Shown in pieces: positions 37,384 to 50,419 of a stretch of DNA of 51,404 bases. How positions within the stretch are numbered: position 1 is the first letter of the stretch; the number at the start of each line of letters is the position of its first letter. Source of the stretch: an uncultured Elioraea sp. (lineage in GTDB: Bacteria; Pseudomonadota; Alphaproteobacteria; Acetobacterales; Acetobacteraceae). The translations under genes were made by a program, and so were the position numbers. The stretch lies in assembly GCA_938010425.1 (NCBI GenBank), contig CALLUO010000048.1, forward strand, positions 1 through 51,404, read 5' to 3'. The notes under the pieces were generated by a model. That model saw nothing but the letters and a program-made list of their open reading frames with translations. It ran no database searches and was not told where the DNA came from.

Positions 37384-40300
37384 ATGTCTGTTCGCAGCAC
37401 TCTGATGCGCGCTCTGTCAGCCCTGATTGTTGCTCTGGTTGTCTGGTTGCTTCCACCAGCGGCATCGGCGTTCGAAATTCCCGGCCTGGCCGCCGACTCC
37501 TCAGCCTACGCCCGCACCCTGACGCCGCGTGCTCCAGCCACCGCCGAGGCGCGCGCCGCCGCTGACCGCCGCATCGACGCCGCCATCGCGCGGAACGACT
37601 GGGCGGAGGCCGTACGTGCTCGTGAGGCCCGCATCGCGCTCGGCGAGGTGACCGATCGTCACTGGCTCCGGCTTGCGGAAGCCTAGACCCGGCGCACCCC
37701 GCCTGATGCGAATCGCGCCCTGCAGGCCGCCTGGCAGGCGTTCATGATGGTGCCGGCGGGGGTGCCGGAAATCCCCTCCCTTCTGCGCCTTGCCGACATC
37801 CTCGCCGGCCTGGCCGCGCGCCCCGAGCTCGCCATCGAGGCGATGGCCGCGGTCATCGAACGCGATCCGGCGAATGCCGCGCACCGCCAGCGTCTCGCCG
37901 AACTCAGGCGCGCGGTTGGCATCATGGTGCGCGGAGTCACGGCGGAGGCGGAGACCGACCCCCCGCGGGCGTGCATCGCCTTCTCCGACGCGCTGTCGCC
38001 GCGCCGCGACATCGCTTGGGCTGATTGGGTGAGGGTCGAACCGGCCGCCTCTGTTGCCGTTGTGGGGGAAGACAATCGCCTGTGCATTGTTGGTCTCGTC
38101 CATGGCCGCACCTGGCGGCTGAGCCTGCGCGAGGGGCTGCTCGGGGCGGATGGGGCGAGCCTGCGCCGCCCCGCCACCCTCGAGGTGACAATCCCGGACC
38201 GGCCGCCGCGCGTCGTGCTGCAGTCGGGGGACTTTATCCTGCCGCGCGGCGAGGCCCCGCGTCTCACCATCGGCACCGTCAATCTCTCCGCTGTCGCCAT
38301 TCGCTTGTACCGCGTGCCGGAGCGCGGGATCACGGGCCAGCTCGGCGAGGACGGTCCGGCCTTTCGCCCCCTATCCTCCTGGGTGGCCCGCAAACTGGCG
38401 ACCGCGCGCGCTTGGTGTCGGAGGGCACCTCGGCGATCCCGTCGTGGCGGCGCAACGAACTGGCCCGCACGGTGCTCGACCTCTCGACCATGCTCTCCGG
38501 CGTTGGACCGGGACTGTTCGCCCTCACGGCCGCTCCCGGCGATGGAACGCCGTGGCCGGACTGGAGCGACCTCGCCACGCACTGGTTCCTTGTGACCGAC
38601 ATCGGCCTTGCGGTTCTTCGGGGCGGCCGGGCTCAAGGTCGCCTTGATCGCGCGCAACATTGAGGAGCTGTCCGTCGTCGAAACCGATGCGGAGGGGGTA
38701 GCGCGCTTTGCCGCCCCGTTGCTACGTGGCCGGGGCGGGGCGGCGCCGCCGCTGGTTTCGGCGCGGGCGGCTGAGGGCGACTTCGCCGTGCTCGACCACG
38801 ATCGCGCCGCCTTCAACCTTTCCGACCGCGGGGTGGAGGGAAGGGCACACCCGGGCCCGCTCGATGCGTGGTTGTGGACCGAGCGCGGCATCTATCGGCC
38901 GGGCGAGACGGTCCACGTGCTCGCCCTCCTGCGCGATGCCGCCGGAGATGCGGCCGATGTTCCGCTGACGCTTCGCCTGCGTCGCCAGAACGGGACTGTC
39001 GCTGCCGAGGCCGTGCCGCGGCCAGACCCGGCGGGGAGGCGACTCTGGTCGGTTCCGCTCTCCCCAGGCGCAGCCCAGGGAGCCTGGACCATCGAGGCCT
39101 TCGCCGGCCCTACCACAGCGCCGATCGCCCGCGCCATCCTCACCGTCGCCGATTTCGTGCCCGAACGCTTGGCTGTGGACATCGGCTCTGCCCCGGGCCC
39201 CCTTGTGCCCGGCACCCCGCTCTCCCTGCCGGTCACCGCCCGCCTCCTCTACGGCCCGTCGGCAGCCGGCCTGCCGGCGCGCGGCGAACTCGTCATCACC
39301 CCCAACCCCGAGCCTTTCCCGCAACTCGCCGAGTGGCGCTTCGGCCTGGTCGAGGACACTCCAGACACGATCCGCGAGGAGCTCGCTCTCACGGAAACCG
39401 ACGCGCAGGGCCAAACGACGGCCACCCTCTTTCTTCTACGCGCGCCTGACACCACGCGTCCTCTGCGTGCGACGGTTTCGGTGGTGGAGGTGAGCGAGCC
39501 GGGCAGGCGGCCCTCGCGCGCCCGGATCAGCCTTCCCGTGCGCAGCCAGCCGACCCTGATCGGGCTCCGTCCCCGATTGGCTGCGGGGGCGGTTGCTGAA
39601 GGAGAAGAGGCGGCGTTCGACATCGCCGCGTTCGACGCTGAAGGCCGGCCGATCGCGCGGCAGGGGCTGAGCTTGCGCTTGGTGCGCGAACGGCCCGACT
39701 GGAGGGTTGGTGATCCGCGACCGCCTTGCGCGCTACGAGACGGTGGGGCGTGATGAGCCCCGGGAGGCGACCTTGCTTGCCGTCGCCCCTGCTCAGCCGG
39801 TGCGGTTCGCCCGCCGGCTGGAGTGGGGACGCTACCGGCTCGGGGTTGCTGACCCAGCCTCGCTTGCTGCCACCTCGGTGCGCTTCCGCGTCGGCTTCGT
39901 CAGCGTCGCCGGATGGGGGGGAGACGCCCGACCTGCTCGACCTCGCCGCAGACTGTGCATCCTCCAGCCCCGGCGAAGCGGGCGCGGGTGAGAATCGAGG
40001 CGCCCTTCTCAGGCACCGCCACCGTACAGGTGCTGACCGATCGCGTGCATACCGTGTGCACGCTTGCGGTGCCGCGGGGCGCGACCATCGTAGATATCAA
40101 GTCGATCGCGCCTGGGGTCCTGGCGCTTATGCTGCGGTTATGCTGGTGCGCGGCCGCAACGAGGACGCCTCCGGCCTTGTGCGGGCGCTGGGCCTTGCCT
40201 GGCTTGGCATCAACCAGACCCGCGCACCCTGCCGGTCGCGATCGAAGCGCCACCCCTTCTCCGCCCCCCGCAGCACGGTCGAGGTCACGGTGTGCACGGC

Positions 40301-42196
40301 ACCCGGCGCCCAGGTCGCGCTGGCCGCGGTCGATGAGGGTATTCTTCGCCTCACTGGCCATGCGGCGCCCGACCCGGCGAGGTGGTTCACCGCCAAACGC
40401 CGCCTCGGCCTCGACAGTCGAGACGATTACGGGCGCCTGATCCTGCCTGCTGAAGGCGAAGCGGGGATACTCCGCCAGGGGGGAGACGAGGACGAGGCCG
40501 GCGCGGGCCTGCCCGCTTTGCCCTTCGTCATCGCAAGCCTCTTCGAATCGCCCCGGGCGGCGGACGCGGACGGCGTCGCGCGGTTCCGCTTCGAGGTGCC
40601 GGACGTGAACACAGCACTCCGGCTCTCTGCCGTCGCTTGGGAGCCGGCGCGCACCGGTGCGGCCGCGTTGTCCGTTCCGGTGCGCGATCGTCTTGTTGCC
40701 GAACCGGCCTTGCCACGCTTCCTTGCCCCGGGTGACAAGGCGCGCATTTGGATCTTCCTGCACAATGTCGAGCTGCTGGCGGGTTACCGTGCGCGTCTCT
40801 CTCGCCGCTGATGGGCCGCTTGCCATCGATGGCGCCACACAGGCGGTCGAGCTCGCTTAGGACGTACCCGCACGCGCCCTGTTTGGTTTTCGCAGCACAG
40901 GTGTGGGGGTGGGCACACTTCGGCTGATGGCGGAGGGGCCTGACGGGTTTTCCGCCAGCCGCGTCTTCTTGCTCGCGGTGCGGCCCGCTCGCCCCGCCGA
41001 GACCACGCTCAGCCGGCGCGAACTCGCTCTTGGGGCAAGCCTTGAGCTTGGGGCGGACTCGCACGCCCGTTTCCTCCCAGGTTTCGAGGGCGCCTTCGGC
41101 CTGTGCAGTGCTGGCGACCCGGCCGAGCCATGGCTGACCGCTTACGCGGTTGAGTTCCTCGTCCGCGCCCGTGCTGCCGGTGTGTCTGTGCCCGAGGCCG
41201 CGTTTGGCTCTACTGCTCGCTGGCTGGCCGAGTTCCCAGACGAGCCAGCGAATGAGCTATGGCCGCGGGCGGCACAGGCTTACGCGCTCTACAGCCTCGC
41301 GCTTGCCGGTCGGCCGAGGCCCGGGGCGGCGCGCGTTCTGGCCGACCAGGGCGCAGGGCGCCTGCCGACGCTTTTGGCACGCGGTCTGCTCGGCGCTGCT
41401 TTGCTGCGCATGGGCGACGCCAAGCGCGGCGAGGCGCAATTGCGCGAGGCGGTCGCCGACCCGAGACGCGAGCCTTTCGCGCAGGACTACGGCTCGACGG
41501 TGCGCGATGCTGCGATGCTGATCGTGCGCGCGCGCAAAAGGGGGGAGCAGCCGATCGCATGACTCGGCTGATCGACCTCTTGCCCGCCGATGCCGTAAAC
41601 CCTGCCCGCACCAGCACCCAGGAGCAGGCCTGGCTGATCGCGGCAGCGGCCGTGCTCGGGCGCGACGGCGTGCCCGTCCCTTTCGCCGTCGACGGGCAGG
41701 AGCGTGCACCCGCCGCGTTGACGACCGTGCTGCGCGCACCAAAGGGCCGTCCGCTCAGTTTGCGTAATCTCGGCCAGCGTCCGATCTTCGCCTCGGTGTC
41801 CCTCAGTGGCGTTCCCGTGCAGGCACCGGGTGCGGCGCGCGAGGGGCTGGTGGTGCGGCGGAACTTCCTCAACCGCAATGGCACCCCGGTGAACCTGGAT
41901 GCGCTGAGGCGGAACGACGTGTTCTCTCTGGTCATTGAAGGCCGAGCGGAAACCCGCCTTGCCCACCAGGCTTTGCTCGTACACGGGCTTCCGGCAGGCT
42001 GGGAGGCAGAGCCCGCTCGCCTTGGCCCGGGCGAGGTGCCAGCCTTCCCCTTCCTCAGCGAACTCACGCGCGCCCGCTCTGTCGCGCTGCGCGCTGACCG
42101 CTTGGTGGCGCGGATCGACCTCACACGCGAGGAGCCGTCTTTCAAGCTTGCCTTCCTCGTCCGCGCGGTTACGCCCGGCCGGTTTGAACTTCCAGG
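37384..42196 (+). pseudogene. Decayed bacterial alpha-2-macroglobulin gene
   Basis: A signal peptide (RALSALIVALVVWLLPPAAS) and then pieces of one COG2373-type alpha-2-macroglobulin in order across shifting frames: DAWLWTERGIYRPGETVHVL, FVPERLAVDIGSAPGPLVPG, LARYETVGRDEPREATLLAV, AAVDEGILRLTGHAAPDPAR, RDDYGRLILPAEGEAGILRQ, PALPRFLAPGDKARIWIF, FGLCSAGDPAEPWLTAYAVE and TSTQEQAWLIAAAAVLGRDG. Lesions: amber stop at 37684-37686; frameshifts near 38400, 38620, 39700, 39915 and 40790; stop at 40858-40860; a shift in a G-run near 41540. The thioester region expected between HARFLPG and FEGAFGLC (about 41070-41095) is missing. The intact protein would trap proteases in the periplasm. Confidence 0.9.
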
Positions 42197-43904
42197 CGCA
42201 TGGCCCTGGCGCGCGCTGCGCTGCAGGCAGTCCGCCACGGCCGCATTGTCTCGGGTGGCAGCACGCTCACCATGCAGGTGGCCCGACTGCTCGAGCCCCG
42301 GCCGCGCACTTTCCGCGCGAAGGCGATCGAAATCCTCCGCGCCCTGCAGCTCGAGGCGCACTTTAGCAAGGACGAGATCCTCGGCCTCTGGCTCACCCTC
42401 GCGCCCTATGGCGGCAATCTCGAAGGGATTCGCGCAGCCTATTGCGCGTTCTTCGGCCGCCCGCCGAGCGCCCTCCATGCGGGCGAACTCGCCCTGCTTG
42501 TGGCCCTGCCGCAACGGCCGAGCGCCCTTCGCCCAGATCGCCACCCCGAGCGCGCTGCGAGGGCGCAGGCGCGGGTACTCGCCCTTGCTCGGGAGGCCGG
42601 TTTGCTCAGCGAGGCCGAAGCAACAGGAGTCGGTCCCCTGCCAAAGATTCGCCTCGCCATGCCAGGCCGTGCGCGGCACCTGGTCGCTCGTGGGGCTGAT
42701 GGAACCGTTCCGCGCCTCGCCACCACCTTCGAAGCCCCGCTACAGGCGGCGCTCGAACGCCTCGCTGAGGAGGAGTCGATGGGGTTCGACCCGCGCGCCA
42801 ACCTCGCCGTCCTGGTCGTGCGCAACGCTGACCGCAGCGTGGCCGCCGCGCTCTGCGGTCTACCAGGGGAGGCCCGGGCCGGCGCTCTCGATCTCTGCCG
42901 CGCCGTGCGCTCGCCAGGGTTGGCGCTGAAACCTATTTTTGTTTGGTGTCGCCATCGATGCAGGCTTGCTTCGCCCGGAAACGCGCATCTCAGACCTGCC
43001 GCAACGCTTCGGGGCTTATGCGCCAGAGAACTTCGCGCGCGGTTTCGCGGGCGACCTCACCGCCCGTGATGCGCTTCGCCTCTCCCTCAACGTGCCGGCG
43101 GTGGCGGTGGCAGATGCGTTCGGTCCATGGGCCTTCCTCGCCGCTTTGAAAACCGCCGGCATCGAGACGCGGCGTCCGGCGGGCGGCGCGCCCGGCCTGC
43201 CCGTGGCCTTGGGAGGCTTCGGCATCACACTTGAAAACATAGTGGCGCTGACCACTGTCCTGGCCGACGACGGCCGGGCCGGGAAGGTGGTCTGGCGCGC
43301 CGACGAACGGGCCACGCTCCGCGCTTTGGTCTCGCCCGCGGCAGCTGGGGCGGTGCGCGCCATTCTCGCTGAGAGCCCCGTTCCGCCTGGGTTTCCGCCG
43401 CAGGCAAACCAACCGCGCTATGTTTGGAAAACTGGCACCTCCTGGGGCCACCGTGACGCCTGGGCGGTGGGCATGTCTGCCACCCATACGATCGGCCTCT
43501 GGGTGGGCGGACCAGACGGCACGCCACTGCCTGGCGAGACGGGGCGCCGGCATGCCTTGCCGCTGTTGCTGCGGGCCTTCGCCCTGCTGCCAGACCCGGG
43601 CCCTTTGCCGCTGGCGCAGCTCCTGCCGCCTGCTCCTGCCTTGGTGAGGCTCGGGGCGAGAGAGGCAGATCGGCTGCATCTGGTCTTTCCTCCGCCCGGG
43701 GCGCAGCTGGCGTTGGGCAGGGCCATCACTCTGCGCGCCGCTGGCGGGCAAAAGCCGCTCAGCTTCTTCATTGACGGCGCGCCAATCGCAAGCGAAAGGC
43801 ATCGCTGCGATGCGCTCTGGCTTCCCGCCTCGCCGGGCGCCTATCGTGTGATGGTGATCGACTCAACGGGGGTGGCCGCCTCGGCCGACATTCGGGTTCG
43901 CTGA
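42197..43904 (+). pseudogene. pbpC: Decayed penicillin-binding protein 1C gene
   Basis: The glycosyltransferase domain begins abruptly at ALARAALQAVRHGRIVSGGS (normally preceded by about 100 or more residues with the membrane anchor and catalytic Glu motif), then STLTMQVARLLEPRPRTFRA and KDEILGLWLTLAPYGGNLEG. The transpeptidase part follows: LCRAVRSPGLALKP (the SxxK-type motif region), then a one-base shift in a T-rich stretch near 42945, then FGVAIDAGLLRPETRISDLP, LRLSLNVPAVAVADAFG, VWKTGTSWGHRDAWAVG (KTGTS) and a C-terminal Ig-like PBP1C tail to 43904. It is fused by deletion to the macroglobulin gene and is followed 3 nt later by trkH. Confidence 0.9.
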
Positions 43905-45364: not shown

Positions 45365-46024
45365 ATGCGGGTGGTGATCGTCGGTGCCTCCAACCTTGCG
45401 GTTGCGACTGCACAGGCGCTGATCAGGCGCGGGCATGAGGTGGTGATTGTCGAGCGCAACCGGGCACGCATCGAGGAGTTGGGAGAACGGCTCGATGTCG
45501 CCTTTGTCGCCGGAGACGGCAACCGCCCCTCTATCCTACGCGAGACAGCCCCCGAGGAATGCGAGGCGTTGATCGCGCTCACGAGCGGCGATCAGGACAA
45601 TATCCTCGCTGCCCTGGTTGGACGTTCCGTCGGCTTCGCGCGCGTGTTGCCCAAGGTTTCGGATCCCGAACTCGAGAATGTCGCCCTCGAGGTCGGCCTC
45701 TCTGAACTTCTCGTTCCCGATCGCACCATGGCGCAGGCGATCGTCGACCGCCTGGAGGGAGGGGCAGGGGCGGGGGCGGAGCAGATGATTCCAGCCGGGT
45801 TCCGCCTCTTCACCTTCGTCGCTACCCAGGAGGACGCTGATGGTAATTGTCTGAAGGATTTGCCAAGGGGCGTGAAGCCGCTCGCCATTTTCCGGGGCGA
45901 AAGCTGCGTTCTTCCGTCTGAGACGGATGCTGTGCATCCGGGCGATCGCATCCTTCTCCTTCTTCCTGCGGAACGTTATGATGACATTCTGGCCAAGCGC
46001 GCAAAACGCAAGGCCAAGCTCTGA
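45365..46024 (+). CDS. trkA: Potassium uptake regulatory subunit TrkA
   Basis: 219 residues, cytoplasmic RCK protein gating TrkH. The Rossmann start VVIVGASNLAVATAQALIRR is followed by VVIVERNRARIEEL and GDGNRPSILRETAPEECEAL, with LTSGDQDNILAAL. The C-terminal TrkA_C half holds LFTFVATQEDADGNCLKDL and VHPGDRILLLLPAERYDD. An in-frame GTG at 45359 with an AAGGAG site 7 nt upstream is an equally possible start and would overlap the trkH stop. This is a single-RCK form, half the length of E. coli TrkA. Confidence 0.92.
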   Translation: MRVVIVGASNLAVATAQALIRRGHEVVIVERNRARIEELGERLDVAFVAGDGNRPSILRETAPEECEALIALTSGDQDNILAALVGRSVGFARVLPKVSDPELENVALEVGLSELLVPDRTMAQAIVDRLEGGAGAGAEQMIPAGFRLFTFVATQEDADGNCLKDLPRGVKPLAIFRGESCVLPSETDAVHPGDRILLLLPAERYDDILAKRAKRKAKL

Positions 46025-46039
46025 TGCCAGCGGACCGGA

Positions 46040-49000
46040 TCAGCCTGGCACGGGGTTGGCGGCGAATACCATTCCGCTGCGTACCACAATCCGCCCCTCG
46101 GCTGCCAGACGGGCGCGTTGGGCGGAGACAGCAGCGCGTGCATCCTCGCCAACGCCGAGCAGCCTCAGCGCTGCCGTGTCCAGGGCTTCGGGTGTGACAC
46201 CGCCCTCCGCCAATTCCAGCGCAGCGCATAAGGCGGCCCGGATCTCCTCAGGCGGAAGCCAGGCTGGCTGCCGCCATCGCGGAGGCAAGGCGCTGCGATT
46301 TCGCACCACCACGGGGCTGCCTATGGCTCGCCAGAACGGGGGTTCCGCAATAAGCCCTTCCAGTTCGGCGCCGAGGCGCAAGGCCTGCTCAAGTGCCGCC
46401 CGCGTTGTCGCGCTTGCTCCTGCTAAGCCCCAAAGTTCGAGCGCGCGTGCGATAACGGCCTCGGTGTGGATCGGCCCTTCAGCGCGCACGATGTCGGCGA
46501 TAATGCGCGTAAGCCGCGCGAAGCCCAGCGCCTCAGGCGGCGTTTCCCTCGGCACCGCGATCGCCGCGGGCTCGTAGCTGCGCGAGACTGATGTGACCAG
46601 GGGAAATTTGCCAGCCGAAGCAGCGGGCGCGCTTTCGCTCATGTCAATCCCAGCGAGGGAGGCAAGACGCTGTGCCTCCACCTCGGGCCGCACGAGCCAA
46701 TCCGCCGCCCAGGAACGAGCAAGCTGCCAGCCCATCATGCCGAGTGCTGCCTCCTGCAGCCGGTCGCGATCGCGCGCCGACCGGGCAGAGGCGTAGAACT
46801 CGCCATCTGTCAGGATACCGAGACTATACCCTTCGCCGGAACGATCGCGTACAGCAACGTCGATGAACAGGCCGGCAAGCCCCACCCGGCGTTCGACTTC
46901 GAGCCCCAACTTGGCAAGCGCGGTGGCGATCGCGTCCGACAGAGCGTTGTCCTGGTCCTCGCGCTGTGCGGCCGCTGGCTGCATGGTACCGCCCGCGGCA
47001 AAGGCAAGGAACTCCTTCAGCACCGCTACCCCGCGCGCGGAGGAACGCGAGAGGTCGATGTCGTCCGCGGAAAGGCCAGAGAACACCACGCAGCGTTTCT
47101 TCGCTCGCGTAATCAGCACGTTGAGGCGGCGTTCACCCCCTTCCAAGGCAAGCGGGCCGAAGCGCATCGCCACCTTACCATCTGGTCCGCGCGCGTAGCC
47201 GACAGAGATGAACATCACGTCGCGCTCGTCGCCTTGCACGTTCTCCAGGTTCTTGACAAAGAACGGCTCGTGCGGATGGGAGGAGAAGAAAGCCTCCGCT
47301 TCGGGGCTTTGGCGTCGCAGCGCGTCGAGCGCGTCGAGGATCGCATCCCGCTGGCGCACGCTGAAGGCGGCGACACCGAGCGTCTCTTGCGGCCGTTCGC
47401 GTGCATGCGCCAGCACCGCCTCCGCCACCGCGCGAGCCTCGATCGCGTTCGTTCCGGACCCGCCGCTGTCGAAGGTGCCCTCCACCCGTACAAGCGACAG
47501 CCCAAGATCTCCGGAACGCGGCTTCGGCGAGGGGATGACGAGCAGCCGGTTCTCGTAGAACGCGCGATTGGACACCGCGATCAGGCTCTCGTGGCGGCTG
47601 CGGTAATGCCAACGCAGCATCTGGCTGGGGAAGCCGCGCGCGGCGCAGAGCGAGAGGATGCTCTCGACATCGCGAGTGGCGACCATATCGTCCTCGGCCG
47701 GTATGCGCTCTTCCTCGTCTGAGGTCATGCGGGCGAAAAAGCGCGTAGGCGGCAGTTGGCGATCGTCGCCGACAACCACAATCTGGCGCGCGCGTGCGAT
47801 CGCGCCGATCGCGTCCACCGGTTCGATCTGGCTCGCCTCGTCGATCACCAGGAGGTCAAACGCGATCGCCGCCGGGTCAAGCAAAGCCGCGACCGAGAGC
47901 GGGCTCATCATGAACACGGGCTTGATCTGCTGCACGAGCCGTCCCGCGCGGGAGAGCAGGGTGCGCACCGGCAAATGTCCGCGCTTCTTCGCGATTTCCC
48001 CGCGTAGCACCGTCATTTCGCGGATGAAGTCGGGCCCTTCGGCGATGCGCAGTCGCGCGGCGTGGGCGGCGGCGGCCTCGGCACGAGCAAGGCCGATGCG
48101 CGCGATGTCCGCCGCGCGGAACTCCTCGATCAGGCGAGTGAACGCGGGCCCATCGAAAGCAGCAAGGGCTGGGTTGGCGCGCATCGCCGCGGCAAGTAGC
48201 GACTCGGCAATAGCGTAACGAACGGCGACGGGAGCCTCGTCTGGTTGGAGCGATCCGTCGGCGAGACGATCCGCCACCGCAGTGAGCCCGGCGTCGCGCG
48301 CCTCGCTGGCGAGGCGCGCCCAGGTGAGCCACTCCGGCAGGGTGGCGACAGACCCTGCCCAAAGTGCCAGTCTTTCCAGAACCCTGCTGAGTGGCGGGTC
48401 GTCCCCTCCGAAGGCCGCGCGGGGGTCGACCGCGAGATCGACGAGGAGGGGATCGAGCGTGGCCCGCACGCCATCCAAGGCGGTGGCGAGAGCGCTTTCC
48501 CGCGTGGGATCGGGCGTTGTCGTCGCTGCCGCCGGATTGTTGGCGAGCAGTGCTTGGCCTTCAAGGATCGCATCAAGAATGGGCAGCGGGTCGGCGGGCG
48601 GAGAGCCGGTGAAGCACGCCGCCACCGTTGCGCGAGCAGACCGATAGGACGGGGCGAGGGAACGCAAAAGCCCCGTACCTTTCGCCAGTTCCGCCCGAGC
48701 TTCGGCGAGGCCAGGCATCGTCCAGGCGGTCTCGCGCACGGCCGGAGCGCGTGCCTTAAGAGCGGCGAAGCGTGCCGCGGCGCGAAGGTCGGCCAGGATG
48801 GCTTCCGCCCCGCGTCGTGTTGCCTCTGGTCCGACAAGGCCGCCGAGCGCGCCGATGGCCTCGATCGCAGCAACGATCCGCCCCGCCAGTCGGTCGAGCT
48901 CCGTCGGCGGCAGGGCGGACGCACACACGCCGCGCCAAACGCTGGTGGCAGGTGTCGCTAAGCGCGCGGCTTCGGCCAACTCGCCCGTCAGACGCATCAC

Positions 49001-50419
49001 GTCGCGTAGGCGCTCCGCCGTATAGCCCGCAACCTCGAGTTTGAAGGAGGGCGGGGCAACACCGGCCTGCTTCAGCCGTGCCACCTCGCCGATCGCACGA
49101 AACGCTGTCCAGCCCGTCTCTCCGATTGGCGCGTGCATGGCGGCAGCATGGCGATTGAGCCGGCCGCGCAGCGCGCCGAGCTCGCGGACGACCGCGGCTC
49201 GATCGGGCGGCTTCGCCCGCGGAGCCTTCAGGGTTGCGTCGAGTTCCGCCACCAGCGCGCGACGGCCCATACCCTCGCTATGCAGGGCGAGACAGGCCGC
49301 ACCAAGCCCGACAGAGGCAAGCCGCCGCTGCACCACCTCGAGGGCGGCGAGCTTCTCGGCAACGAACAGCACAGTTTTTCCATCGAGCACGGCTTGCGCG
49401 ATCACGTTCGTGATCACCTGGCTTTTCCCCGTTCCTGGCGGGCCCTGGATGACCAGCGAGCTGCCACGACGCACCGCTTCTGCTGCAAGCGTCTGGCTGC
49501 CATCCGAATCGAGCACGAAATCAAGCCGCTCGACGGGGATCAGCGCGTCGATGTCCGCATCGTCCGGAAAGGTTTCGCTTGGTGGCGGCGGGTCAGCGCC
49601 GAGAAGGGCGCGCACGAGCGGGTGGCGCGCGATTTCCTCCCGCTCAAGATCCTTGAACATCAGGAATTTGGCAAAGGAAAAGAGGCCCAAGGCGATCGCG
49701 TCGCGCGCGACGGTGAAGCCGCGCTGCGCCACCACATCCGCAACCTGGTCAAACCAGCCCGCGATGGCGCTCCAGCCCTCGGCCCCGAAATCGGGCGCCT
49801 CCGGCAGGGTCAGCTTGAACTGAGCGGCGAGAAAGGCAGCCAGTGTGAGGTTGGCGGCGATTTCGCCGCCATCCCAGCTGAGATGGAAGGCATCGCGCGC
49901 CGTCCGTCGCGAGAGCCGGCACGGCACAAGCACGAGGGGCGCATATCGGACCTTCGCGCCGTTGCCGTCATCCCGCCACCCGAGCTGGCCCAAGCCGAGG
50001 AAGAGGATGTTGATCCCCTGTTCGTCGATAAAGCTCCTCGAGTCGCGCTCAAGCCGCGTCAGTGTGCGAGCGAGCACGGCGGGGGAGAGGCCAGCGGAGA
50101 GGATCTGGTCCTCGGGGTCGGGGACGCTCGGGGCACCTGGGGCGGCGATGGCACGGCGACGGCCGCCGGCAGAGGTTGGTTTCGCCTCGCGCTTGCGAGC
50201 AGTTGCTTGCTCTTCGCCGTCGTTCTCGGCCGCCGCCAGTCCCATGGGCTTGCCCTCGCCGACAAGGCGAGCGAACACGGTTTCCGCACGCTCGCCAACG
50301 ATCGGCACCACGCCTGCGCTGCGACCGGGCTCCGGCAGCGACAGCAGGCGATTGCGCAGGGAGAAGTCGAGAAGGTCGCGCTGCGCGCGCTGCAAAGCAG
50401 CCAAAACCGGATCGTTCAT
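46040..50419 (-). CDS. DUF4011 / superfamily-1 helicase / nuclease-like / DUF3320 protein
   Basis: 1459 residues. N-terminal DUF4011 (RAQRDLLDFSLRNRLLSL; LFLGLGQLGWRDD). Helicase core: Walker A GPPGTGKSQVITN (Lys332), LFVAEKLAALEVVQRRL, Walker B LLVIDEASQIEPVDA (Asp860-Glu861), GDDRQLPPTRFF (motif III), LRWHYRSRHESLIA (motif IV region), VQGDERDVMFISVGYA (motif V) and RRLNVLITRAKKRCVVF (motif VI). A PD-(D/E)XK-like region near residues 1165-1250 has LFIDVAVRD (Asp1187) but GILTDGEFYASARSARDRDR where I recall GIExDGxxYHSA. DUF3320 ends the protein (FARLTRIIADIVRAEGPIHT). Related proteins occur in phage-defence loci (Hhe-like architecture) and as single genes. It is monocistronic here, and its role in this genome is not established. 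Confidence 0.88.
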   Translation of the reverse strand: MNDPVLAALQRAQRDLLDFSLRNRLLSLPEPGRSAGVVPIVGERAETVFARLVGEGKPMGLAAAENDGEEQATARKREAKPTSAGGRRRAIAAPGAPSVPDPEDQILSAGLSPAVLARTLTRLERDSRSFIDEQGINILFLGLGQLGWRDDGNGAKVRYAPLVLVPCRLSRRTARDAFHLSWDGGEIAANLTLAAFLAAQFKLTLPEAPDFGAEGWSAIAGWFDQVADVVAQRGFTVARDAIALGLFSFAKFLMFKDLEREEIARHPLVRALLGADPPPPSETFPDDADIDALIPVERLDFVLDSDGSQTLAAEAVRRGSSLVIQGPPGTGKSQVITNVIAQAVLDGKTVLFVAEKLAALEVVQRRLASVGLGAACLALHSEGMGRRALVAELDATLKAPRAKPPDRAAVVRELGALRGRLNRHAAAMHAPIGETGWTAFRAIGEVARLKQAGVAPPSFKLEVAGYTAERLRDVMRLTGELAEAARLATPATSVWRGVCASALPPTELDRLAGRIVAAIEAIGALGGLVGPEATRRGAEAILADLRAAARFAALKARAPAVRETAWTMPGLAEARAELAKGTGLLRSLAPSYRSARATVAACFTGSPPADPLPILDAILEGQALLANNPAAATTTPDPTRESALATALDGVRATLDPLLVDLAVDPRAAFGGDDPPLSRVLERLALWAGSVATLPEWLTWARLASEARDAGLTAVADRLADGSLQPDEAPVAVRYAIAESLLAAAMRANPALAAFDGPAFTRLIEEFRAADIARIGLARAEAAAAHAARLRIAEGPDFIREMTVLRGEIAKKRGHLPVRTLLSRAGRLVQQIKPVFMMSPLSVAALLDPAAIAFDLLVIDEASQIEPVDAIGAIARARQIVVVGDDRQLPPTRFFARMTSDEEERIPAEDDMVATRDVESILSLCAARGFPSQMLRWHYRSRHESLIAVSNRAFYENRLLVIPSPKPRSGDLGLSLVRVEGTFDSGGSGTNAIEARAVAEAVLAHARERPQETLGVAAFSVRQRDAILDALDALRRQSPEAEAFFSSHPHEPFFVKNLENVQGDERDVMFISVGYARGPDGKVAMRFGPLALEGGERRLNVLITRAKKRCVVFSGLSADDIDLSRSSARGVAVLKEFLAFAAGGTMQPAAAQREDQDNALSDAIATALAKLGLEVERRVGLAGLFIDVAVRDRSGEGYSLGILTDGEFYASARSARDRDRLQEAALGMMGWQLARSWAADWLVRPEVEAQRLASLAGIDMSESAPAASAGKFPLVTSVSRSYEPAAIAVPRETPPEALGFARLTRIIADIVRAEGPIHTEAVIARALELWGLAGASATTRAALEQALRLGAELEGLIAEPPFWRAIGSPVVVRNRSALPPRWRQPAWLPPEEIRAALCAALELAEGGVTPEALDTAALRLLGVGEDARAAVSAQRARLAAEGRIVVRSGMVFAANPVPG

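What the first reader, a model, noticed from the sequence alone, without database searches (positions are those of the whole stretch)
46040..50419. Giant single-gene helicase with an apparently inactivated nuclease-like domain
DUF4011, helicase, nuclease-like and DUF3320 parts resemble proteins known from defence islands. Helicase motifs are intact. In the nuclease-like part Asp1187 is kept, but the positions I expect as Glu and His read Leu (GIL) and Ala (YASA). The protein may work as a helicase alone, or use a partner nuclease.
Basis: partly seen in the sequence, partly recalled or inferred. Interest (0 to 1): 0.55.

Follow-up and report, generated by a model that had tools for sequence, protein, structure and literature searches.

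The report
Giant helicase with disarmed nuclease domain
A very large bacterial helicase of a candidate virus-defence family has kept its motor but lost the cutting residues of its attached nuclease domain, and the blunted domain is still preserved by selection, which suggests it now grips DNA or RNA rather than cutting it.

Summary
Observation confirmed. The 1459-aa ORF (46040-50419, minus) is DUF4011, Upf1-like helicase, MTES_1575 (Vsr-fold) domain and DUF3320; its best PADLOC match is candidate PDC-S37, not Hhe. Asp1187 is kept, but the family's Glu and His read Leu1203 and Ala1210; a third conserved Glu reads Ser1161, and the window's domain has no histidine. This is not standard: 50 of 59 domains read from giant helicases of a phylum sample keep D-E-D-H. 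It is no sequencing error: all 8 Elioraea/sister-genus rows changed both positions, all 24 rows of their Acetobacteraceae clade lack the His, and the intact/lost state changes at least 7 times on the tree, while helicase motifs stay intact. The dead Elioraea domain is under purifying selection (dN/dS 0.09-0.24) and evolves, relative to the helicase, about like intact nucleases. The gene is in 7 of 7 genus genomes searched; no defence gene or partner nuclease was recognised beside the window copy. Best reading: an ATP-driven helicase whose Vsr-fold domain became a non-cutting nucleic-acid grip or scaffold, as in FASTKD4 and RecC. Catalytic death, the grip role and any anti-phage function are inferred, not measured. 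New variant of a known kind.

The parts
46040..50419 (-). Giant ORF, 1459 aa, PDC-S37-type DUF4011 / SF1 helicase / Vsr-fold (MTES_1575) / DUF3320 protein
49829..50374 (-). DUF4011 domain, residues 16-197
   Evidence: Pfam PF13195, 110.7 bits
49421..49444 (-). Walker A GPPGTGKS, residues 326-333
   Evidence: K332 in 93 of 96 rows with a letter there; the other 3 (L061, L083, L143) show unrelated letters, being frames cut off upstream
47831..47842 (-). DEAS motif (Walker B), residues 860-863
   Evidence: D860 and E861 in 98 of 98 rows with a letter
47747..47770 (-). GDDRQLPP motif, residues 884-891
47597..47611 (-). WHYRS motif, residues 937-941
47225..47239 (-). VQGDE motif, residues 1061-1065
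47099..47110 (-). TRAK motif, residues 1104-1107
   Evidence: R1105 in 97 of 97 rows with a letter
46652..46972 (-). Inactivated Vsr-fold (MTES_1575) domain, residues 1150-1256
   Evidence: Pfam PF18741; AlphaFold2 model and fold search
46937..46939 (-). Ser1161 in place of the conserved Glu of the first helix (FE -> LS)
46859..46861 (-). Asp1187, conserved strand-2 Asp, kept
46811..46813 (-). Leu1203 in place of conserved Glu (IECDG -> ILTDG)
46805..46807 (-). Asp1205, invariant in the 79 rows of alignment A1, changed copies included
46790..46792 (-). Ala1210 in place of conserved His (YHS -> YAS)
46424..46519 (-). DUF3320, residues 1301-1332; PMC3710099 describes a winged helix-turn-helix overlapping DUF3320 in the MTES_1575 protein

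Best explanation
The protein is a PDC-S37-type giant helicase with a (predicted) working Upf1-like SF1 motor and a catalytically dead Vsr-fold domain. Most likely it loads on DNA or RNA, helped by its N-terminal DUF4011 region and C-terminal winged helix, and moves or unwinds by ATP hydrolysis. The former nuclease domain now grips the nucleic acid or serves as a scaffold; it does not cut. The biological outcome would be removal of invading replication intermediates, R-loops or bound proteins, or genome maintenance. Shown by computation: domain order, motor motifs, loss of three conserved active-site-region residues, Vsr-like fold, purifying selection on the changed domain, presence throughout the genus. 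Inferred: loss of cutting, the grip/scaffold role, ATPase activity, loading, substrate, and any anti-phage role.
For: Motor: helicase motifs intact; nearest sequence relatives in the PDB are SMUBP-2 and Sen1; the model of residues 260-1459 (pLDDT 85.9, pTM 0.68) matches Ighmbp2 (Z 19.2), UPF1 (18.8, 18.6) and the nuclease-helicase Dna2 (16.8). Dead site: Ser1161, Leu1203, Ala1210 replace a Glu kept in 98% of the intact rows and the Glu and His of D-E-D-H; no histidine in the window's domain. Fold kept: alpha-beta-beta-beta-alpha-beta model, pLDDT 77, matching I-Bth0305I (Z 10.4), 3hrl (10.1), Vsr 1cw0 (9.0) and FASTKD4 9gek (8.3). G1180, D1187, D1205, A1215, R1216, R1218, G1230, W1231, W1237, W1241 are kept in 24 of 24 clade rows, H1210 in 0, E1161 in 1, C1204 in 1. 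Retained: dN/dS 0.09-0.24 in 8 of 8 pairs; nuclease:helicase tree-length ratio in Elioraea plus sister genus 1.14 (column bootstrap 5-95%: 0.81-1.61), intact groups 0.86-1.56 (6 of 6), other loss clades 1.83-2.81 (3 of 3). Present in 7 of 7 genus genomes, the window's included. Precedents: FASTKD4 has the Vsr Asp but Asn for His69, and mutating that Asp had no effect (PMC11879112, passages); RecC has a dead nuclease-like domain that forms a hoop for single-stranded DNA (PMC1185551, abstract).
Against: No biochemistry or structure of any PDC-S37 member was found in the library held. D1187 and D1205 persist and could still hold a metal ion. In 5 of 8 pairs the dN/dS of this domain is two to three times that of the second helicase half, so its constraint is real but not maximal. 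The rate test rests on 8 related sequences, a 107-residue domain and 60 bootstraps; its interval overlaps the lower ends of two of the three loss clades (1.10-2.80 and 1.53-2.49), and some intact groups reach 2.0-2.2. The domain's fold matches (Z 8-10) stand only somewhat above the 7-8 that the tool reports as typical for models without a clear match, and Foldseek alone gives nothing at E 0.001 or better. For the motor, UvrD (SF1A) scores Z 16.9, so fold alone does not settle SF1A or SF1B. In the FASTKD4 paper an earlier D531A result by others pointed to a needed residue. Nothing here measures nucleic-acid binding.
Confidence: 0.62

Rival explanations
1. The domain still cuts with a reduced active site: Asp1187 and Asp1205 bind one metal ion, and water or a residue elsewhere replaces the histidine.
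For: D1187 and D1205 are kept in 24 of 24 clade rows, D1205 in all 79 rows of A1; the domain is under purifying selection.
Against: Three conserved polar positions are changed together and the window's domain has no His. D1205 is kept in 21 of 21 other changed rows too, so it may be structural. FASTKD4 keeps the Vsr Asp, yet mutating it had no effect.
Confidence: 0.13
2. The helicase recruits a separate nuclease in trans, as HamB works with HamA in Hachiman.
For: Such split systems exist (PMC12278908: start of the abstract in a search listing; the one passage I read, concerns another matter). Two of seven genus genomes (G004, G005) carry a second giant helicase with an intact MTES_1575 domain.
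Against: No second MTES_1575 domain in the window genome or in G001, G002, G003; G006 showed none at all, its copy of the gene being cut off before the domain. No nuclease among the window neighbours scanned. The gene stands alone between a convergent and a divergent neighbour. Other nuclease families were not sought genome-wide, and flanks of the other loci were not scanned for nucleases.
Confidence: 0.14
3. The domain is decaying: nuclease activity became useless, and only the rest of the protein matters.
For: In three other loss clades the domain has 1.8-2.8 times the tree length of the helicase half, as expected under relaxed constraint; the state changes at least 7 times on the tree; in 5 of 8 Elioraea-side pairs dN/dS of the domain exceeds that of the helicase half.
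Against: In Elioraea and its sister genus the ratio is 1.14 and dN/dS is 0.09-0.24, far below 1. The genus copies show no internal stop; 4 of 7 are complete and 3 are cut by contig ends.
Confidence: 0.1
4. Sequencing or assembly error in the window.
For: The neighbouring A2M and pbpC genes of the window carry many single-base indels, and the gene itself is a mosaic relative to L021.
Against: The same positions are changed in 7 other assemblies of Elioraea and its sister genus (L021-L025, L125, L126), and the ORF is open throughout.
Confidence: 0.01

Closest known systems
PDC-S37 (PADLOC candidate single-gene defence protein, PDLC05009)
   Same: 1402-bit match, best of 11 PADLOC families
   Different: This lineage lacks conserved nuclease residues; located outside any recognised defence island; no paper naming PDC-S37 in the library
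Hhe (PADLOC PDLC02194)
   Same: Shares the helicase and Vsr-fold core (606 bits, best stretch 680-1246)
   Different: Hhe profile has 1911 positions and its best stretch starts at 1203; this protein has 1459 aa and scores more than twice as high with PDC-S37. The second giant helicase of G004/G005, with an intact site, is probably closer to Hhe (inferred from length and low identity; not scanned)
MTES_1575 Vsr-type REase (PF18741; described in PMC3710099, passages)
   Same: Over the Pfam cut-off, Vsr-like fold, followed by DUF3320
   Different: Conserved Glu, Glu and His changed; the paper's 'active' label for the MTES_1575 protein belongs to its HEPN table and does not show nuclease activity of this domain
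RAP domain / FASTKD4 (9gek, 9g6k, 9i05)
   Same: Same Vsr-like fold; His changed while the strand Asp is kept; RNA binding without cleavage proposed (PMC11879112, passages)
   Different: Organelle proteins of eukaryotes, no helicase; a fold likeness, no kinship claimed
RecC dead nuclease-like domain (PMC1185551, abstract)
   Same: Nuclease fold without catalysis in a helicase machine, re-used to handle DNA
   Different: Related to the RecB nuclease domain, in a multi-subunit complex
P. aeruginosa core DUF4011 gene flanking cDHS1 (PMC10250203, passages)
   Same: A large DUF4011 gene found in every isolate examined there, i.e. core rather than mobile
   Different: Its sequence and nuclease state were not examined here

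Membership tests
PDC-S37 | Whole-protein match to the PADLOC model, better than to other models | tested here: met
   1402.1 bits, best of 11 families; 2 stretches, best 641-1450 against profile 725-1543 of 1550
PDC-S37 | Anti-phage activity of a member | not testable with these tools
   needs phage assays; no paper naming PDC-S37 in the library
Hhe | Better match to Hhe than to other giant helicases, with the longer N-terminal part | tested here: not met
   605.8 bits against 1402.1 for PDC-S37; best stretch begins at profile position 1203 of 1911
SF1 Upf1-like helicase | Walker A, DEAS, Gln of motif III and the later motifs | tested here: met
   AAA_11/AAA_12; SMUBP-2 and Sen1 by sequence; fold Z 19.2 to Ighmbp2, 18.6-18.8 to UPF1, but also 16.9 to UvrD
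SF1 Upf1-like helicase | 5'-3' ATP-dependent unwinding (SF1B) | not testable with these tools
   needs biochemistry
Vsr-fold / MTES_1575 domain (fold) | Profile match and alpha-beta-beta-beta-alpha-beta fold | tested here: met
   PF18741 71.3 bits, cut-off 38.2; model against Vsr Z 9.0 and 8.1, I-Bth0305I 10.4
Active MTES_1575 / Vsr-type nuclease | Conserved His (Vsr His69) | tested here: not met
   Ala1210; 0 of 24 clade rows have His; equivalence to His69 is by sequence order and fold, not by superposition of residues
Active MTES_1575 / Vsr-type nuclease | Conserved strand Asp (Vsr Asp51) | tested here: met
   Asp1187, 24 of 24 clade rows
Active MTES_1575 / Vsr-type nuclease | Family-conserved Glu of IECDG and Glu of the first helix | tested here: not met
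   Leu1203 and Ser1161; equivalence of the helix Glu to Vsr Glu25 is recalled, from no call
Active MTES_1575 / Vsr-type nuclease | Metal-dependent cleavage | not testable with these tools
   needs biochemistry
Defence-island gene | Neighbouring defence or mobile genes | tested here: not met
   Of 9 window neighbours scanned on the 3' side, 8 gave no PADLOC match; the ninth, an ABC transporter ATPase (PF00005), gave ATPase matches such as mad3 at 102 bits. On the 5' side TctC, then the contig ends. Flanks of the other loci were not scanned

The most novel reading that the evidence does not exclude
In Elioraea and its sister genus a defence-type giant helicase has been domesticated: it is vertically inherited at a mostly stable chromosomal place, its Vsr-fold domain has become a non-cutting nucleic-acid clamp under renewed constraint, and it serves genome or transcript maintenance (for example removal of R-loops or stalled complexes) instead of, or besides, phage defence. 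Similar disarming has happened several times in the family, so nuclease activity is dispensable for a core function of these helicases.
Probability: 0.3. Interest if true: 0.68.

Novelty: new variant of a known kind. Interest (0 to 1): 0.5.

Why it matters
Giant DUF4011 helicases occur in many bacterial phyla and, as I understand the field, are taken to act through their nuclease. Natural variants that keep the motor and lose the cutter, in several lineages, separate the two activities and give a ready-made test of which part does the work. Elioraea adds a case where the changed domain is held about as tightly as intact ones, which points to a second, non-catalytic job for a Vsr fold in bacteria; the examples I know of (RAP proteins) are eukaryotic.

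Tried and rejected
Assembly error: rejected, relatives share the changes. Shifted catalytic His: rejected, the window's domain has none. Compensation by Glu/Asp1207: rejected, the sister genus has Ala there (L125, L126). Partner nuclease: sought by PF18741 in 7 genus genomes and by a scan of window neighbours; none found for the window genome. Phage-borne origin: one viral-contig scan with this single protein found no relative, weak evidence. Shared-neighbour clustering mixed true genes with shadow frames in this GC-rich DNA and was used only for orientation. Three L023 references (one, two) gave no Pfam match; I judge them shadow frames. The column printed for the helix Glu (1162) was off by one; searches use 1161.

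Limits of counts. The 80 genome-contig loci are the best 80 of 171, ranked by likeness to the query, and favour window-like proteins; frequencies come. Those read 60 loci, the strongest matches, out of 112 genomes with a match (some genomes twice, and many of the rest weak helicase-only matches; the same search rings in 8 of 14 control genomes). The domain was found in 59 of 60 (not in L204). Many of the 59 are longer Hhe-type proteins, so 50 of 59 describes giant helicases that match the PDC-S37 model, not PDC-S37 alone. In the family sample, 44 of 150 genomes matched; the domain was read from 27 of them besides the window: 14 intact, 13 changed (one of the 13, G164, is a distant protein with Arg for His). 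Rows left out of the tree: L028 and L042 (same genomes as L135 and L131), L142 and L130 (no nuclease part); the short loci L001-L020 and L101-L124 were superseded by longer ones before the alignment. L126 was used as a stop-to-stop frame, longer than the gene. The 1200-residue model used 48 of the 77 rows available; the domain model used all 79.

Papers seen: PMC3710099, PMC10250203, PMC11879112 and PMC12278908 by passages; PMC1185551 by abstract and section list; all others by search listing only. That inactive members are not described in print rests on searches of one open-licence library; others returned nothing.

Full report
Observation. The window holds one uninterrupted ORF of 1459 codons at 46040-50419 on the minus strand. 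Pfam recognises DUF4011, AAA_11/AAA_12 helicase parts, MTES_1575 and DUF3320. PADLOC places it first in the candidate family PDC-S37 (1402 bits), with Hhe second (606 bits). The helicase motifs are present. Asp1187 is correctly numbered; the two missing residues are Leu1203 and Ala1210.

Origin. The nearest named loci are Elioraea; their contigs have the same lengths as those of the unnamed genus genomes. The gene is found in 7 of 7 genus genomes searched, the window's included, the other six at 68-94% identity over the part present; the copies of G002, G005 and G006 are cut by contig ends.

Are Leu and Ala unusual? In an alignment of 99 rows, 97 of which hold the domain, the typical sequence is D..IECDGAxYHSARSARDRDRLR. 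51 of 97 rows have the full D-E-D-H set, one of them an Hhe-like outgroup row. That sample favours window-like proteins. In a sample drawn evenly from the phylum (397 genomes, 112 with a match) I read the domain in 59 of 60 loci fetched, the strongest matches, Hhe-type proteins included; 50 of 59 have D-E-D-H. So the window's state is a minority state. The Phe-Glu of the first helix, each 98% in the 50 intact rows, reads Leu-Ser here. The window's domain contains no histidine.

History. A tree of 97 rows, built without the nuclease columns, puts the window in a 24-row Acetobacteraceae clade (SH-aLRT 100), all lacking the His. Its first branch, L132, changed the His but kept both Glu; the other 23 also lost the helix Glu; the 8 rows of Elioraea and its sister genus also lost the Glu at 1203, as did L135. 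This order is read from the tips and was not reconstructed formally. On the whole tree the intact/lost state changes at least 7 times, counting L140 and not L048, whose column is a gap; parsimony cannot tell loss from gain. Other changed rows are in Bacteroidota (His to Ala, Ser or Ile, in some with the Glu changed too; in a Chitinophaga group Glu to Met or Thr with His kept), Hymenobacter gummosus (both), a Pirellulaceae and a Verrucomicrobiota record. The tree is a quick LG+G4 tree with several long branches, so the number is approximate.

Selection. Across 8 pairs within Elioraea and its sister genus the changed domain has dN/dS 0.09-0.24 (Nei-Gojobori); dS is above 1 in two of the pairs. 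In 5 of 8 pairs this is two to three times the value of the second helicase half, in 3 of 8 it is lower. Relative to that half, tree length of the domain is 1.14 in this clade (column bootstrap 0.81-1.61), 0.86-1.56 in 6 intact groups, and 1.92, 2.81 and 1.83 in three loss clades. A pairwise measure agrees: 1.05 here, 0.96 for all intact rows, 1.69, 1.97 and 1.66 for the loss clades. So loss tends to be followed by faster evolution, and Elioraea looks like an exception, as if a new constraint had set in. Sequences are few and related, and the intervals overlap at the edges.

What stays and what goes. In the 24-row clade G1180, D1187, D1205, A1215, R1216, R1218, G1230, W1231, W1237 and W1241 are kept in all rows; H1210 in none, E1161 and C1204 in one each. 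By contrast helicase residues D860, E861, Q888 and R940 are kept in 98 of 98 rows with a letter and R1105 in 97 of 97; K332 in 93 of 96, the other three (L061, L083, L143) being frames cut off upstream.

Fold. AlphaFold2 gives the domain an alpha-beta-beta-beta-alpha-beta fold (pLDDT 77, pTM 0.71). Ser1161 falls in the first main helix, Asp1187 in the second strand, Leu1203 in the third and Ala1210 in the short helix after it. The best matches are I-Bth0305I, 3hrl, RAP domains of the Toxoplasma mitoribosome, Vsr and FASTKD4 (Z 8.1-10.4). That is only somewhat above the usual best Z of 7-8 for models without a clear match, and Foldseek's best E-value is 0.0015; but the top seven rows are all of the Vsr/DUF559/RAP kind, and a profile of the domain finds RAP proteins by sequence at E 0.001. 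FASTKD4 keeps the Asp of the Vsr pair but has Asn for His69, and its authors conclude that it binds without cutting (PMC11879112, passages). The larger model (residues 260-1459, pLDDT 85.9, pTM 0.68) resembles Ighmbp2, UPF1, Aquarius, Senataxin and Dna2, and also UvrD.

Setting. Downstream on the opposite strand lie trkA, trkH, pbpC and a bacterial alpha-2-macroglobulin gene; upstream and divergent lies a TctC receptor gene. TctC is the neighbour in all 6 genus loci whose contig reaches that far (window, L022, L023, L024, L025, L142). The pbpC/macroglobulin pair follows in the window, L021, L022 (in pieces), L023 and, without trk, in L126 of the sister genus; it was not seen in the flanks of L024 (same genus) or L125 (sister genus). 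On balance this points to vertical inheritance, with some rearrangement. Outside these two genera the gene is patchy: 44 of 150 family genomes have any relative, Hhe-type and weak matches included. Of 9 window neighbours scanned, 8 gave no PADLOC match and one, an ABC transporter ATPase, gave generic ATPase matches. The window genome shows no other MTES_1575 domain.

Interpretation. The simplest account is a helicase whose nuclease domain was disarmed in steps and kept as a nucleic-acid-handling part; FASTKD4 and RecC are precedents for such re-use. Whether it defends against phage is unknown: the PADLOC family is, as its PDC code says (recalled), a candidate, and a DUF4011 gene is also core in P. 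aeruginosa (PMC10250203, passages).

Verdict. Observation confirmed and extended; inactivation very likely; helicase-only function likely; partner nuclease unsupported. New variant of a known kind, interest 0.5.

Noticed in passing
window 38600-43900: The alpha-2-macroglobulin and pbpC genes of the window carry at least eight single-base indels and lack about 210 and 350 bases relative to L021, most of this also relative to L023; they look pseudogenised or mis-assembled. L022 is fragmented here too.
   Followed up: partly
window 46000-50374 against L021: Identity to L021 is 96-99% at 47.6-50.4 kb but 80-94% at 46.1-47.6 kb (dS 0.01-0.17 against 0.28-0.54): a recombination break or a chimaeric contig inside the gene. 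Both versions have the changed nuclease site.
   Followed up: partly
L014/L144 (G004) and L015 (G005): Two of seven genus genomes carry a second giant DUF4011-type helicase with an intact D-E-D-H site; the G005 copy is in pieces on short contigs.
   Followed up: partly
L057: A record titled Bacillus subtilis SK7B5 carries a copy that groups tightly with Stenotrophomonas (L030); probably contamination of that assembly.
   Followed up: no
L187, L189, L191, L197: Other giant helicases of the phylum sample have further changes at the same positions (D-I-D-E twice, D-L-D-A, D-L-D-D).
   Followed up: no
L029, L034, L044, L045, L051, L067, L127, L128, L129, L131, L133, L134, L136: These Roseomonas-type copies keep Glu1203 and share an Asp-Trp just before the lost His position (L135 has it without the Glu), a possible rebuilt surface.
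   Followed up: no
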